A program made the position numbers and the translations under genes. The notes under the pieces were generated by a model. It was not told the DNA's origin. It worked only from the letters and a program-made list of their open reading frames with translations, and made no database searches. Positions 43,566-59,513 of a stretch of 64,000 nt of DNA are shown here, one piece after another. Numbering within the stretch: position 1 is the first letter of the stretch; every line of letters starts with the position of its first letter. The stretch is from NCBI GenBank assembly GCA_015183035.1, contig JACZZP010000001.1, positions 1,364,001-1,428,000 on the forward strand, in the 5' to 3' direction. The DNA is from Meloidogyne chitwoodi. Its lineage: Eukaryota > Nematoda > Chromadorea > Rhabditida > Meloidogynidae.

Positions 43566-46006
<2,441 letters not shown>

Positions 46007-49467: not shown

Positions 49468-50373
49468 ATGGAAGTTTTGGACCCACGAAATACATTAATT
49501 ACTAATCAAGAAGTTCTTGAACTTCTTAATCAGGCAAAAATACAACAAATGTATAGCAGGGGTTCTCAAAATCATAATACAATAGTTTATGAGGCTATGA
49601 AATATTTGAATGATACAAATGCTTCTTCACAAAAAAGAGAAACTATTGTTGAGTTGATTAACTTGCTGAAAAAGTTTAAGCTTACTGGATCTGAGGTTTA
49701 AATATATATAATTTTTAATTTATGCTAACAATAAGTCAAATTTTTTTATTATTTCCTCTTGAAAAACAATAATCCGTATTTATTATTCAGGTTTATAGAC
49801 TGATAATTATTTTTGGTACTTATCGGTTATCCCTAAGCACTTTTTGCGGACAAATTTATTTTGTGTCTTCGAACACCAAGTTGTTGACGACATTTATTAC
49901 ATTGCCAAACTGGTCGTTGTGCGTGATAAAGCTTCATTTCATGTCCGTTGCGACAAACTCTCGTTTTGTGTAGAAGACCACGATCTTGTAAGAATTCGAT
50001 GGCATCTTTTTCAGTTGTTGGAAAATCGCAAATTTTAAATTAAATAAAATACTAAAAAATGAATATAAAATAATACAGATAATACTTTATTCTTAGTTTT
50101 CATATATATTATACACAAAAAATTGATTGATTGATTAAGTGCCACAGGCTAGTGTAGGAAAACGAGAAAGGCACAAAATAAATTTGTCCGCAAAAAGTGC
50201 TTAGGATAACCGATAAGTACCTTATTTTTAAGATTATGCAAATTTTGAATCTTCGTCCGAAACAAGCTCTAGAAGTTCAACTTATTGTCGAAGAATGTGA
50301 GGAAAGACTTTCAGAAGAAGAATTGGATGAACTTGTTGAAATAATTTGTAAAATTATGCCATCGGAAAAATAA
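49468..50373 (+). CDS. CRCP: RNA polymerase III subunit RPC9 (CRCP)
   Basis: RPC9 forms a stalk heterodimer with RPC8 on Pol III. Exon 1 (49468-49695) gives MEVLDPRNTLITNQEVLELL, then HNTIVYEAMKYLNDTNASSQ and IVELINLLKKFKLTGSE. Exon 2 (50233-50373) gives IMQILNLRPKQALEVQLIVE-ECEERLSEEELDELVEIICK-IMPSEK. This matches the Rpb4/RPC9 fold including LNxRPxxxxExQLxVEExEERL. About 124 residues. The single intron (49696-50232) is large only because it contains a transposon insertion. Its acceptor is AAG. Confidence 0.94.
49815..50221 (-). mobile_element. Merlin-type element in the RPC9 intron (407 bp)
   Basis: Ends GGTACTTATCGGTTATCC and its complement, with TTTTTGCGGACAAATTTATT just inside. The target duplication TTATTTTT is perfect (49807-49814 and 50222-50229). 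The minus strand carries a transposase N-terminus: TTEKDAIEFLQDRGLLHKTR, VCRNGHEMKLYHAQRP and VWQCNKCRQQLG, a zinc-binding region. The DDE part is missing. Confidence 0.9.
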
Positions 50374-54802: not shown

Positions 54803-57283
54803 TCAGATTTCAGGTGCAAAATCCATATGGCTGAGAATAGAACTGAATTCCTTGGCCAATTCCGGCGTACAGGCACAGAGTACTTTTCTGCTCATCAGAT
54901 CGAACGGAACACCTAATTTAAAACAAAATTTGAAAAGTTTAATAAATTTAATTAGAATTCAGACCGGTTGGGTCGATAACCATTCCGCCAGCTTCACGCA
55001 CAATAACAACGGCAGCAGCCATGTCCCATGAGTGAAGTCTTAAGAAAATAAAGTAATTACATGTGTAGGCAATCCATATGTACACAACATATAAATTGTA
55101 ACTTGTATCAGTATACGAGACCTCCTCCAGAATTAAAAAATTTTCAGGAGGAAGAAAAAGTAAAAAGTTTTCGCCTCGACACATAAATTTTTATAGTAGA
55201 TAATAATAAATTAAAAATATTCATAATATTTACCCGCATTCAACATAAGCATCGATTGAACCTTCTGCCAAAAATACCATATTTATTGAAGCTGCTCCAA
55301 AACTTCGATTACTATGCAATTAATTTAAAATTTTGGTACTTATCGGTTATCCCCGGACTTTTTGCGGGCAAATATTAATTTGTGTTTGTGCCGGTGACAC
55401 TAAATCAACTTTGTTGACCCCCGAAACTGGATGTAATGCTCAAAAGGTGGAAAGGATGTGTGGCAGTGTCAAATGGCGTAATAAGAAACATCGGGACGTC
55501 ATCAATTGGACAGTTATTTTGCAGAATTTATGTTGAGGAAAATGATTGGCGAAGGAGACGTTTTTGAAGAAATTATACCTGTTTGAGGGAAATATTGGCT
55601 ATTGGATTGATTTTTTATTCATTTTTTATATAAATTTGTCCGCAAAAGTCCGGGGATAACCGATAAGTACCGAAATTTTTTTATTAAATTAAAATAAAAA
55701 AGTTTAACCTTTCGAATACTGGATTTTTTGGTACTTACGTATTATCCCTACGGACTTTTTGCGGACAAGTTTTTGCGGATTCAATGGCATCTTTTTCAGT
55801 TGCTGGCAAATCCCAAATTTTCATTATAAATAAAATAGACTAATAAAATGGAATAGAAATGATAAAACTTCATTTTTTCTTAACTTTCATATATATTATG
55901 AATCAAATTTAATTGATTGATTCTGAGTGACAACGGTACATGGAGGAAGAAAAATTGATATTTGTCCGCAAAAACTTATCCGCAAAAAGTCCGTAGGGAT
56001 AATACGTAAGTACCGATTTTTTTTTAAAACGGTATATATCGATCTTAAATGGTACGAAACAAAATAAAAAGCATTCTTACTTGATTTAAGTGCGGAACTA
56101 TGTTTTTTGTAATACGAAAATTGAGAAACCATAGGAGGAACATGCTCTTTTTATTCGAAAATTTTTCCTAAAAAATTTTAAAACTGACCCGTGTATGCCT
56201 GAAAGAATCAATTTTCGCTGATTCTCAAGCATAAGGTTCAGCCATTCTTGACCTTTCTCACGGATATTGTGAATTCCCTGAGATTGGCATATGACAGCTT
56301 CTTTGAGCCCTTATTTTTAAAGAATAAATATTTAATTTCAATAATTTAACAATATCTCAAACATTTATACCTTTAGCAGAAGAAGTATGTATCTGAAAAC
56401 CATTTTTGAATGCCCCACGCCCAGTTTGAGCAGAATAAAGCTCATCAGTTATCGGATTATATACAATACCAGCACATAGACGTTTTTTAATTGTCAGACC
56501 AACACAAATACCAAAAAAAGGAATCCTATAAAAGTAAATTGATAACTCATTTTTGGTTTGAAAATTCGTATAAATTATAGCTCATTCGAGAGATCTCGTC
56601 GAGCTGACTGAATCAATGACATCAAAATCAGTAAATTTGGATGCTTAGAAAAGTTATGCTTTTTTGAATATACCCATAAGCCTATTTCCACGAAAAAAAA
56701 CCTGTGAACAAAGTTTGTTGTACCATCAATTGGATCTTAAGTGAATTCAAAAAATGAAAGAAATCAAGCAAACCAATAATCCACGTTGGTGCATCAGTGA
56801 ACTCGTACTTCTTGCCAGAAGATGCTCCTTCTTCACCAATAAATCTGAATTTTTTACCAAAGATAAACTTTTGCAATCTTTAAAATTTTTTCATCGTCAA
56901 ATATACATTGGATTTTTCGACGCACTAACCACAAATCGATATCCATTATTGTCTTTTATCTAAGGACTAGTAAACTGTTAGAAACTAACTTATGATCAGG
57001 AAAACGAGTAGAAATTCTTCCAATCAGCAATTCTTCTACAGCCCTATCCGTCTCGGTAACAAAGTCAGTTGCTGATGCCTTGGTGTAAACAGTTCCCACG
57101 GGTTTTGCAAATGCACTTTTGACTATCTAAAAAATTTAAAAATTTTTAGATTTTTCATTTAAATTAAGAAAATACATTTCCTGCCTCACGGACAACATCG
57201 AGGGCAAACAGAAAGAATTCATCTTCATCCTTTAATGTGTAATGATTAAGTTTTGAAGAATTTTCCACGTTTAAGTTTTCCAT
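54803..57283 (-). CDS. IMPA1: Inositol monophosphatase
   Basis: Releases free myo-inositol from inositol phosphates; Mg-dependent and lithium-sensitive in animals. The start ATG at 57283 gives [20 protein letters not shown]. Then [60 protein letters not shown] (metal-binding Glu), [12 protein letters not shown] (metal-binding Asp pair), [40 protein letters not shown] and [20 protein letters not shown] (last metal Asp). It ends [14 protein letters not shown]. All metal ligands are intact. The intron at about 55322-56180 has taken two separate transposon insertions, and the region upstream of the ATG is a large nested element. Confidence 0.93.
55335..55671 (+). mobile_element. Merlin-type element in an IMPA1 intron, copy D (337 bp)
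   Basis: Ends GGTACTTATCGGTTATCC and complement. Flanks AAAATTTT and GAAATTTT form an 8-bp duplication with one mismatch. The plus strand contains [20 protein letters not shown] then WRNKKHRD, a transposase C-terminus broken by frameshifts and a stop. Confidence 0.85.
55730..56014 (-). mobile_element. Merlin-type element in the same IMPA1 intron, copy E (285 bp)
   Basis: Ends GGTACTTACGTATTATCC and complement, flanked by a perfect GATTTTTT duplication (55722-55729 and 56015-56022). The minus strand encodes only [16 protein letters not shown], the first residues of the transposase. It lies 58 bases from copy D. Confidence 0.88.
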
Positions 57284-57797
57284 ATTTAAGAAATAGTAAC
57301 TTTCTAAGGTAATTGTTACTTTTACTGGTCCCTAAAAAAATTATCAAAAATGGTCCGATTTCTTCATTTTTCAACTAATAATAGGTTTGTGCATACGCTG
57401 AGCTCGAATCTTTGCTCAGGTTTTAAAAATATCGAATCCCGGACCCAGATTCGACATGTCGACTTCAGGGTAAATATTCTAATATAAACAAATGATAGCT
57501 CATTCGATTCGTCTTGTCGAACTGAGTTGAATGATACTAAAGTTAATACTGTTAAATGTTTTTTAAGGCAGTTATGATTGATTTTTTGATTAGCAGTCGG
57601 TAAAATAATGAATTTGATCGATCATAACTTACTTAGGCACTTGTCAAGATGGGACGGCTTTTTTTGCGGACTTTTTTTGCGGACAAATTATTTTTTGATT
57701 TTTTCCCAAGGCAATAAGAGTGTACCTTGACTAACAAATATGTGTAAATGTTTTTTACCTTGTCATTTATATTTTTGTTAATCAATTATCCAATAAA

Positions 57798-58735
57798 ATG
57801 ATTCAAACTCTTAAAAATTTTACTTTGTTACAATTATACACCAAAATAAGCTTACCCGATGATGAATTTCAACATTGGCTTTCTAGTCTTGGTATGCTTC
57901 ACAAAACAAGAACATGTATTTGTGGCTCAGAAATGCGTAAAGAAAATTATAAGCAATATGGACAATGGCGTTGTAAAAAAACAACATGTAGAAAAACAAA
58001 AGGGGCTTTGGTTGGCACTTTCTTCAATGGTTTTAAGCTAACTTTCAAACAAGTGATACAGGTAAATTTTGCCGATTATGTACTTTATACCATTTGGAAA
58101 ATTTCCGGTACTTGTGTGTTATCCCTACGGACTTTTTGCGGACTTTTTTTTTTTTGCGGACAAATATCAATTTTTCTTTTCTTTCTCCATATACTGTTGT
58201 CACTCAGTCAATCAATTAAATTTGATTCATAAAGTTAAGAAAAAGTGCTGTTTTATCATTTCTATTCCAGTTTCTTAGCTATTTTATTTATAATGAAAAT
58301 TTGGGATTTGCCAACAACTGAAAAAGATGCCATCGAATTCTTACAAGACGTGGTCTTCTACACAAAACTAGAGTTTGTCGCGCTGGACATGAAATGAACT
58401 TTATCACAAATATGATTGGTGATAGAGACGTTTTTGAAGAAATTATGATTGATTGGAGGAAATATTGGCCATTGGATTGATTTTTTCTTTTATATATTTT
58501 CTCTTAAAAAATAAATTTTGTCCGCAAAAAAAGTCCGCAAAAAGTCCGTAGGGATAACACACAAGTACCAAATTTCCTTCTAAGATAATGTATTTTTGGT
58601 CGAGAAGACCAGTTATACATATAAATCAAAAAGAATTGCAAAGAGAAATTGGTGTGTCAAGGCAGTCAATAATTGATTGGCAAAACTTTCACTCTTATTG
58701 CCTTGGGAAAAAATCAAAAAATAATTTGTCCGCAA
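57798..58735 (+). pseudogene. Truncated Merlin-type transposase with one intron
   Basis: Exon 1 (57798-58061) gives MIQTLKNFTLLQLYTKISLP, FQHWLSSLGMLHKTRTCICG, QYGQWRCKKTTC and FFNGFKLTFKQVIQ: the zinc-binding N-terminus. Exon 2 starts at 58585 after an AAG acceptor and gives IMYFWSRRPVIHINQKELQR-EIGVSRQSIIDWQNF, the helix-turn-helix region preceding the catalytic domain. The frame then runs into the right terminal repeat, so the DDE domain is deleted. The host intron (58062-58584) would be about 52 bases without the inner insertion and its target copy. Confidence 0.8.
58107..58569. mobile_element. Innermost level: short Merlin-type element (463 bp)
   Basis: Ends GGTACTTGTGTGTTATCC and complement, nearly the same as the element in the HPD intron. 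Perfect 8-bp duplication AAATTTCC at 58099-58106 and 58570-58577. Inside are transposase scraps on the plus strand: MKIWDLPTTEKDAIEFLQD near the middle, and MIGDRDVFEEIMIDWRKYW near the right end. N- and C-terminal ends have been brought together by deletion. Confidence 0.92.
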
Positions 58736-59040
58736 AAAAAGTCCGCAAAAAAAGCCGTCCCATCTTGACAAGTGCCCTTACTTAAAAAATAGCTAAAAGT
58801 CCTAATTTTGTTATCATTCAACTCAGCTCGACAAGACGAATCGAATGAGCTATCATTTGTTTATATTAGAATATTTACCCTGAAGTCGACATGTCGAATC
58901 TGGGTCCGGGATTCGGTATTTTTAAAACCTGAGCAAAGATTCGAGCTCAGCGTATGCACAAACCTATTATTAGTTGAAAAATGAAGAAATCGGATCATTT
59001 TTGATAATTTTTTTAGGGACCAGTAAAAGTAACAATTACC

Positions 59041-59513
59041 ACTTTCTAATAAATATTTATATAGCTAACGCTAATAACCACTCATCACAAAATGATTTCC
59101 CTTGTTGAGTACGTTTTGCGCTCAAATGTCGCGAAGAGTAAAGTAAACTAGGGAAAATGGTGAAGCAGTTCAACTGAGTCTGGCTCAACTGACAATGAGT
59201 CACTTTTTTAAAGTTTAACTCAAGTTTTTTCTTAGATACGAAAATATAAAAATAAAAATGATAGCTCATTTGAGAGCTCTTCGAGCTGAGTCGAATGAGA
59301 TGAAAATAAATGAATTTAGTTGAATTTGAACAAAGCGTGACCAGTTGAGACAGATTCAGTCGTGTAGATTCAGTTGTGTACCGAAAATGGCGTTAAATTC
59401 TAGAGATGTTCCAAGAGTTTTGGTTATCACCGTTTTCTTTTTTTTGGTCTTGGGTCTTGGCTTGTAAGTCTTGGGTATGATATAATTCATACTAGGTTTC
59501 CCATGAGTTACCC
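59041..59513. other. Intergenic with remnants of foldback motifs
   Basis: Contains ATGATAGCTCATTTGAGAGC followed by CTTCGAGCTGAGTCGAATGA at about 59259-59299, a divergent copy of the motif inside the foldback elements. No gene is seen. Confidence 0.5.

What the first reader, a model, noticed from the sequence alone, without database searches (positions are those of the whole stretch)
57299..59049. Three transposons nested like Russian dolls, each with its own readable target duplication
A foldback element (9-bp duplication ACTTTCTAA) contains a Merlin-type element (8-bp CTTACTTA), which contains a shorter Merlin-type element (8-bp AAATTTCC). All three duplications are perfect, so the order of insertion is fixed and each event can be undone on paper. 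The similar duplication length and the GG... ends suggest the outer foldback may be mobilised by the same transposase class.
Basis: seen in the sequence. Interest (0 to 1): 0.75.

Follow-up and report, generated by a model that had tools for sequence, protein, structure and literature searches.

The report
Three nested Merlin transposons
Three small jumping-DNA elements of the Merlin kind sit one inside another just upstream of a metabolic gene, probably in a plant-parasitic root-knot nematode; the order of their arrival can be read exactly, but nested transposons like these are an ordinary sight in transposon-rich genomes.

Summary
A foldback element (57308-59040, 9-bp duplication ACTTTCTAA) contains a Merlin element (57636-58776, 8-bp CTTACTTA), which contains a shorter Merlin element (58107-58569, 8-bp AAATTTCC); all duplications are exact. 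Uninterrupted copies of the outer and middle elements elsewhere in the genome fix the order outer, middle, inner. Three uninterrupted middle copies are identical to this one over 670 bp, so the last two insertions are recent. Mobilisation by Merlin transposase is inferred. New details: the outer 181-229 bp of the foldback's right arm look copied from its left arm; the inner element lies in a presumed intron of the middle element's transposase remnant; the nest starts 15 bp from the presumed start codon of an inositol monophosphatase gene; 3 of 23 other examined foldback copies also carry Merlin insertions. Orthologous empty sites could not be tested. Well resolved, ordinary in kind.

The parts
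57299..57307 (.). left target duplication of the outer element, ACTTTCTAA
57308..59040 (+). outer element: long-armed foldback of a Merlin-related family, own sequence 57308-57635 and 58785-59040 (584 bp without the nest)
   Evidence: link to the transposase-bearing L105
57308..57567 (+). left arm of the foldback (about 260 bp)
58785..59040 (-). right arm of the foldback; the outer part (59040 down to somewhere in 58811-58860) is left-arm type, the innermost part is right-arm type
57628..57635 (.). left target duplication of the middle element, CTTACTTA
57636..58776 (+). middle element: Merlin deletion derivative, 670 bp without the inner element, perfect inverted repeats of 87 bp
57798..58061 (+). 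88-aa N-terminal transposase reading frame (presumed first exon) left in the middle element
58062..58584 (+). presumed 52-bp intron of that frame (58062-58106 plus 58578-58584), interrupted by the inner element
   Evidence: the homologous L018 frame continues across the joint
58099..58106 (.). left target duplication of the inner element, AAATTTCC
58107..58569 (+). inner element: 463-bp Merlin deletion derivative with a frame-shifted N-terminal transposase remnant and a short C-terminal one (read by eye against L018 and the 44977-45520 element)
58570..58577 (.). right target duplication of the inner element, AAATTTCC
58777..58784 (.). right target duplication of the middle element, CTTACTTA
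59041..59049 (.). right target duplication of the outer element, ACTTTCTAA
57176..57283 (-). presumed first coding exon of an inositol monophosphatase gene; its ATG lies 15 bp from the target duplication and 24 bp from the nest
   Evidence: PF00459, E 8.7e-50 on exons joined by eye

Best explanation
Three successive cut-and-paste insertions of non-autonomous Merlin-superfamily elements. First a long-armed foldback MITE went into the promoter or 5' leader of an inositol monophosphatase gene, duplicating 9 bp. Later a 670-bp Merlin deletion derivative went into the loop of that foldback, duplicating 8 bp. Later still a 463-bp Merlin derivative of a sister family went into the presumed intron of the second element's leftover transposase frame, duplicating 8 bp. 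The second and third insertions are recent. At some point the outer part of the foldback's right arm was overwritten with a copy of its left arm. Shown: sequence, order, target duplications, paralogous empty sites, and homology of each family to elements with Merlin transposase sequence. Inferred: that Merlin transposases moved all three, which copy supplied the enzyme, the mechanism of the arm copying, and any effect on the gene.
For: Exact duplications and ends against 0 hits in 40 shuffles. Uninterrupted paralogs: middle, 670 bp at 100% in L045, L047, L048; outer copies with intact ends are 568-599 bp long. Duplication length: middle family 17 of 20 copies exactly 8 bp, 1 more with one mismatch; inner family 6 of 8 exactly 8 bp, 1 more with one mismatch. 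Outer family, 24 copies examined: 9 bp in 6, 8 bp in 10, ambiguous in 1, none exact in 7, one of these with a single mismatch (boundaries could shift by up to 6 bases, 15 of the 16 exact ones needed no shift). Across all fetched loci, GG elements with 10- or 11-bp duplications number 0, with 6 bp 3 (all palindromes) and with 7 bp 1 (a shifted reading of L023). Transposase: PF12762 in L018 (E 1.2e-8, over the cut-off) and L024 (E 3.7e-4, just under it); middle frame against L018 35% over 96 aa, E 3e-13. Outer: L105 with perfect 151-bp arms, PF12762 piece at E 5.7e-5, two further transposase queries hitting the same element, arms shared with the foldbacks. Arm copying: own arms 95.3% alike against 77-78% in the five nearest relatives; the window's right arm matches their left arms at 90-92% and their right arms at 81-84%; its two arms share two variants that the left arms of these five lack.
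Against: L105 has no exact target duplication and shares only 54 bp at 87% directly with the window copy; the link runs through L088, L096 and L097. Two of the PF12762 scores relied on (L024 and the L105 piece) fall below the curated cut-off. The L018 stretch that matches PF12762 holds 5 stop codons, which introns or decay may explain. No complete transposase-bearing element with middle-type ends was recovered. MULE loci here also show 8-9 bp duplications and GG ends, and one tip of the MULE locus L031 shares its first 10 bases with the foldbacks L096 and L097. The tip pattern that led to L105 has a high background (153 matches, 79 for the reversed control). Arm copying could instead come from recombination with another copy.
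Confidence: 0.9

Rival explanations
1. The outer foldback belongs to the Mutator (MULE) superfamily, like the Tm1 foldback elements of root-knot nematodes, and only the two inner elements are Merlin.
For: Tm1 is a foldback family of this nematode genus with mostly 9-bp duplications (passages of PMC3169594). MULE domains occur in this genome (26 matches); 5 of 20 fetched MULE loci show GG ends and 8-9 bp duplications (L025, L032, L033, L035, L036, by eye). L031, a MULE locus, has a tip GGTAAAGGTC... that shares 10 bases with foldbacks L096 and L097 and a weak 69-bp match to the arms (72%, E 0.001).
Against: Tm1 has different motifs at its two ends (CGGTTAA-like and CCTACCC) and tandem motif-C units; the window foldback has the same GGTAATTGTTACTT on both ends, and I saw no such units. 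L105 ties the family's arms to Merlin transposase over 110 bp at 95-96%.
Confidence: 0.05
2. The nest is an assembly artefact or a later rearrangement of fragments rather than three clean insertions.
For: No reads were available to test the assembly; the elements are repetitive.
Against: Three independent pairs of exact duplications at the borders, intact copies of the middle and outer layers elsewhere and near relatives of the inner one at 96%, and similar nests at L067, L087 and L109 are not what misassembly would make.
Confidence: 0.02
3. The matching arms of the window foldback are the ancestral state, and the relatives' right arms diverged, so no arm copying took place.
For: Other copies also have arms 92-96% alike (L075, L090, L091, L096, L097), and L105 has identical arms.
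Against: The window's two arms share two variants (AATCTTTGCTCAGG; AAACAAATG) absent from the left arms of its five nearest relatives, and the innermost part of its right arm is still of the relatives' right-arm type.
Confidence: 0.12

Closest known systems
Merlin superfamily (IS1016/IS1595-related DNA transposons)
   Same: GG termini, inverted repeats within 24-462 bp, 8- or 9-bp duplications, DDE_Tnp_IS1595 transposase in related copies (definition from passages of PMC8101967; tests).
   Different: All three copies in the nest are non-autonomous; the outer one is a 584-bp foldback with arms of about 260 bp and little else. The words foldback, nested, non-autonomous and gene conversion do not occur in the main text of PMC8101967 (word search).
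Tm1 Mutator/foldback family of Meloidogyne
   Same: Foldback-like MITEs of root-knot nematodes with mostly 9-bp duplications; a nested insertion is described there too (abstract and passages of PMC3169594).
   Different: Tm1 has asymmetric end motifs, tandem motif-C arrays and a Phantom/MULE transposase; the window foldback has symmetric GGTAAT ends and arms shared with a Merlin element.
MITEs and internal deletion derivatives in general (recalled)
   Same: Short, transposase-defective, in part identical copies that keep both ends.
   Different: The middle family keeps an open 88-aa N-terminal transposase exon in 7 of 7 compared copies of 657-670 bp and 6 of 6 of the 719-721-bp type; other, more diverged copies have it broken. 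No marked preference for that half was found.

Membership tests
Merlin (inner and middle elements) | terminal 5'-GG and inverted repeats of 24-462 bp | tested here: met
   perfect ends GGCACTTGTCAAGA (87 bp) and GGTACTTGTGTGTT (about 50 bp with one indel)
Merlin (inner and middle elements) | 8- or 9-bp target duplications | tested here: met
   middle 17 of 20 copies and inner 6 of 8 copies exactly 8 bp
Merlin (inner and middle elements) | DDE_Tnp_IS1595 transposase in the family | tested here: met
   L018 (inner-like ends) over the cut-off, E 1.2e-8, with stops inside the matched stretch; L024 (middle-type ends) E 3.7e-4 at 25.3 bits against a cut-off of 27; the nested copies themselves lack the catalytic domain
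Merlin (outer foldback) | terminal GG and inverted repeats of 24-462 bp | tested here: met
   GGTAATTGTTACTT on both ends, arms about 260 bp
Merlin (outer foldback) | 8- or 9-bp target duplications | tested here: met
   24 copies: 9 bp in 6, 8 bp in 10, ambiguous in 1, none exact in 7
Merlin (outer foldback) | Merlin transposase in an element with the same arms | tested here: met
   L105: arms 95-96% over about 110 bp to family members L096 and L097, 87% over 54 bp to the window copy; transposase exons with a PF12762 match at E 5.7e-5, 23.6 bits against a cut-off of 27
Merlin (all three) | mobilised by a Merlin transposase | not testable with these tools
   needs binding or excision assays
Tm1 Mutator/foldback (outer) | asymmetric A1/A2 end motifs and tandem motif-C units | tested here: not met
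   both ends identical; no tandem units seen when reading the aligned copies, no tandem-repeat program was run; motif definition from passages of PMC3169594
Tm1 Mutator/foldback (outer) | about 9-bp (8-10) target duplications | tested here: inconclusive
   8 or 9 bp, which fits both superfamilies

The most novel reading that the evidence does not exclude
The foldback family keeps itself mobile by copying one arm, tip included, over the other, and in doing so can change its tip and be served by different Merlin transposases. Its copies share a body but differ in a block at tip positions 6-14, identical at both ends in 10 of the 12 family copies that pass an ends filter of at most 2 mismatches, and three of these blocks equal blocks of other Merlin families in the same register (weak: P 0.04-0.07).
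Probability: 0.15. Interest if true: 0.6.

Novelty: new member of a known kind. Interest (0 to 1): 0.35.

Why it matters
It gives a base-exact, ordered record of three Merlin insertions beside a gene start, shows that Merlin elements moved recently in this genome, and links a foldback MITE family to Merlin; the foldback family of root-knot nematodes that I found described (Tm1) is Mutator-type. The middle and inner insertions are good candidates for presence/absence differences between isolates, which would test recent activity directly.

Tried and rejected
Repressor idea: the middle element keeps an open N-terminal transposase exon, which suggested selection for a DNA-binding fragment. Searches with an N-terminal query (144 matches) and a C-terminal query (126 matches), both capped at 150 scored candidates and of different length, show no marked excess of the N-terminal half, so this was dropped.

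Tip exchange: three 7-base tip blocks are shared between foldback tips and other Merlin tips, but against position-matched random tips the probability is only 0.04-0.07, so it is kept only as the novel case. Copies L073, L076 and L087 have different tips at their two ends, against it.

Preferred nesting: 4 of 24 examined foldback-family copies carry a Merlin insertion (window, L067, L087, L109). At the window's own density of Merlin elements (5 besides the foldback in 64 kb) about 1 would be expected in 14 kb of foldback; the window copy was given because it is nested, and transposons cluster, so no preference is claimed. Not counted among the 24: L085, L086 and L093 (single arms), L098 and L100 (second cuts of L094 and L067), and L105-L108, which were run in the same script. 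Further copies listed were not fetched.

L085 and L086 looked like longer relatives of the foldback but share a duplicated segment holding a single arm. Two pattern searches were mis-spelled by me by one position and were not used.

Full report
What was checked. The window is C1:1364001-1428000 of a 47.48-Mb, 30-contig genome, 26% GC. The size fits Meloidogyne chitwoodi: 47.4 Mb in a passage of PMC11118728, with N50 2.3 Mb in PMC12002905 (part 1 of 2 read). That the published assembly has 30 contigs is recalled. Transposase relatives from other plant-parasitic nematodes appear among the 120 listed of 348 hits (M. hapla, Heterodera trifolii, Bursaphelenchus xylophilus), but the top hits are unnamed or insect. 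The host name is likely, not proven.

The nest. Outer element 57308-59040 with duplication ACTTTCTAA, middle 57636-58776 with CTTACTTA, inner 58107-58569 with AAATTTCC; each duplication is exact and each pair of ends matches perfectly over 16 bases. Scanning the window for GG...CC elements with exact 8- or 9-bp duplications finds six: these three plus 44977-45520, 49815-50221 and 55730-56014; lengths 6, 7, 10 and 11 give none. Eleven other starting dinucleotides give 16 hits with A/T-only ends or palindromic duplications. Forty dinucleotide shuffles give none.

Order and age. Uninterrupted copies of the middle element carry AAATTTCC once: three are 100% identical to the window copy over 670 bp (inner omitted) and one is 99.85%. 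Uninterrupted outer-family copies with intact ends are 568-599 bp long and read through the insertion point. The order is therefore outer, middle, inner. Because the middle copy has no differences from three others, the middle insertion, and the inner one after it, are recent. The inner copy's two nearest relatives are 96% identical.

What the middle and inner elements are. L024, with middle-type ends, matches the IS1595/Merlin transposase domain just under the curated cut-off (E 3.7e-4); L018, with inner-like ends, is over it (E 1.2e-8, though with stops inside the matched stretch). The middle element keeps an 88-aa N-terminal transposase frame followed by what looks like a 52-bp GT-AG intron and the start of a second exon; the joined frame aligns to the L018 transposase (35% over 96 aa, E 3e-13). 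The inner element sits inside that presumed intron. The inner element keeps a frame-shifted N-terminal remnant and a short C-terminal one (by eye). A Pfam scan of the 87-aa piece of the middle frame alone found nothing. Transposase remnants of this kind are common here: 144 matches to an N-terminal query and 126 to a C-terminal one.

What the outer element is. It is a foldback of 584 bp with arms of about 260 bp and no evident coding capacity. Of 24 family copies examined, 6 have exact 9-bp duplications, 10 exact 8-bp ones, 1 is ambiguous and 7 have none. Duplication length does not decide the superfamily, because 5 of 20 fetched MULE loci also show 8-9 bp duplications and GG ends (by eye), and one tip of the MULE locus L031 shares 10 bases with foldbacks L096 and L097. 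The decisive find came from a tip-pattern search with a high background (153 matches, 79 reversed): C6:271246-272978 (L105) has foldback-family tips 1733 bp apart. It has perfect 151-bp arms and, between them, exons of a Merlin transposase: one piece matches PF12762 at E 5.7e-5 (below the cut-off), the other two pieces give no Pfam match, and two related transposase queries hit the same element. Its arms match foldbacks L096 and L097 at 95-96% over about 110 bp, L088 at 92% over 60 bp and the window copy at 87% over 54 bp (E 3.6e-12); L106, known to me only by its tips, also matches at 96% over 110 bp. L107 looks like a deletion derivative of an L105-like element (95% over 329 bp, 89% over 213 bp). 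L105 itself has no exact target duplication. Other Merlin transposase elements with GGTAA or GGAAA ends exist: L010-L013 with 8-bp duplications, and L023 (domain match below the cut-off) with a 9-bp one.

Arm copying. In the five nearest relatives the two arms are 77-78% alike; in the window copy they are 95.3% alike. The window's right arm resembles the relatives' left arms (90-92%) more than their right arms (81-84%). It shares with its own left arm two variants that the left arms of these five lack, the last at arm position 181, and shows right-arm type from about position 230 inward. The simplest reading is that the outer 181-229 bp of the right arm were overwritten by the left arm. Five other copies with 92-96% arm identity (L075, L090, L091, L096, L097) suggest this may recur, but that was not tested.

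Gene context. On the minus strand an inositol monophosphatase gene begins with a presumed ATG at 57283, 15 bp from the target duplication (PF00459, E 8.7e-50 on exons joined by eye). The nest thus separates the gene from its former upstream sequence. Any effect is untested.

Literature. The Merlin definition (24-462 bp inverted repeats, GG ends, 8-9 bp duplications) is from passages of PMC8101967. Tm1, a Mutator-type foldback of root-knot nematodes with asymmetric end motifs, and an earlier nested insertion in that genus, are from the abstract and passages of PMC3169594. Merlin is named among the widespread superfamilies of nematodes in a passage of PMC11118728; the word does not occur in the main text of PMC8288018, on M. 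incognita transposons. In the held open-access library, Merlin with foldback and MITE gave one plant review, not opened; Merlin with Meloidogyne and transposon gave 7 papers, of which I opened PMC11118728; Merlin, MITE, nematode and terminal inverted repeat gave 7, none opened; gene conversion, foldback, inverted repeat, transposon and arms gave 6, none opened. Within those searches I found no description of a Merlin foldback in nematodes.

Verdict. Nested MITEs are common, so the finding is a clean and datable example rather than a new kind of thing.

Noticed in passing
window 57176-57283 (minus strand) and the nest upstream of it: The nest begins 15 bp from the presumed start codon of an inositol monophosphatase gene, so the insertion lies in its promoter or 5' leader.
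   Followed up: partly
window 44977-45520, 49815-50221, 55730-56014: Three further Merlin-type elements with perfect ends and 8-bp duplications lie in the same window; the first encodes a C-terminal transposase remnant (PF12762 E 0.003, below the cut-off).
   Followed up: partly
L067 888-1391, L087 1151-1775, L109 257-528: Three other copies of the outer foldback family carry Merlin-type insertions with exact 8-bp duplications (AGAAAACC, AAAATATC, and AAATTTTT read by eye).
   Followed up: partly
window 56572-56631 and 59256-59311; outer arms; L009-L013, L016, L019, L031, L039: A dispersed, partly palindromic motif of 40-60 bp (TCATTCGA...TCGAGCTGAGTCGAATGA) recurs in the foldback arms, in Merlin loci, in MULE loci and outside them.
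   Followed up: no
L010-L013 (C3, C8, C25, C28): Four near-identical 2.19-kb Merlin elements with two open transposase exons and 8-bp duplications suggest recent activity of another Merlin family.
   Followed up: partly
L031 281-2756: A MULE element with Tm1-like asymmetric ends (GGGTAGG at one, CGGTAAA at the other) and tandem units, which looks like a Tm1 relative in this species.
   Followed up: no
L105 205-246 and 2032-2074: The transposase-bearing L105 has no exact target duplication and is flanked by 43-bp inverted repeats at 86% identity, unexplained.
   Followed up: no
outer-family tips genome-wide: Tips share GGTAA and a GGTCC motif but differ in a block at positions 6-14, identical on both ends in 10 of 12 filtered copies and different in L073, L076 and L087.
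   Followed up: partly
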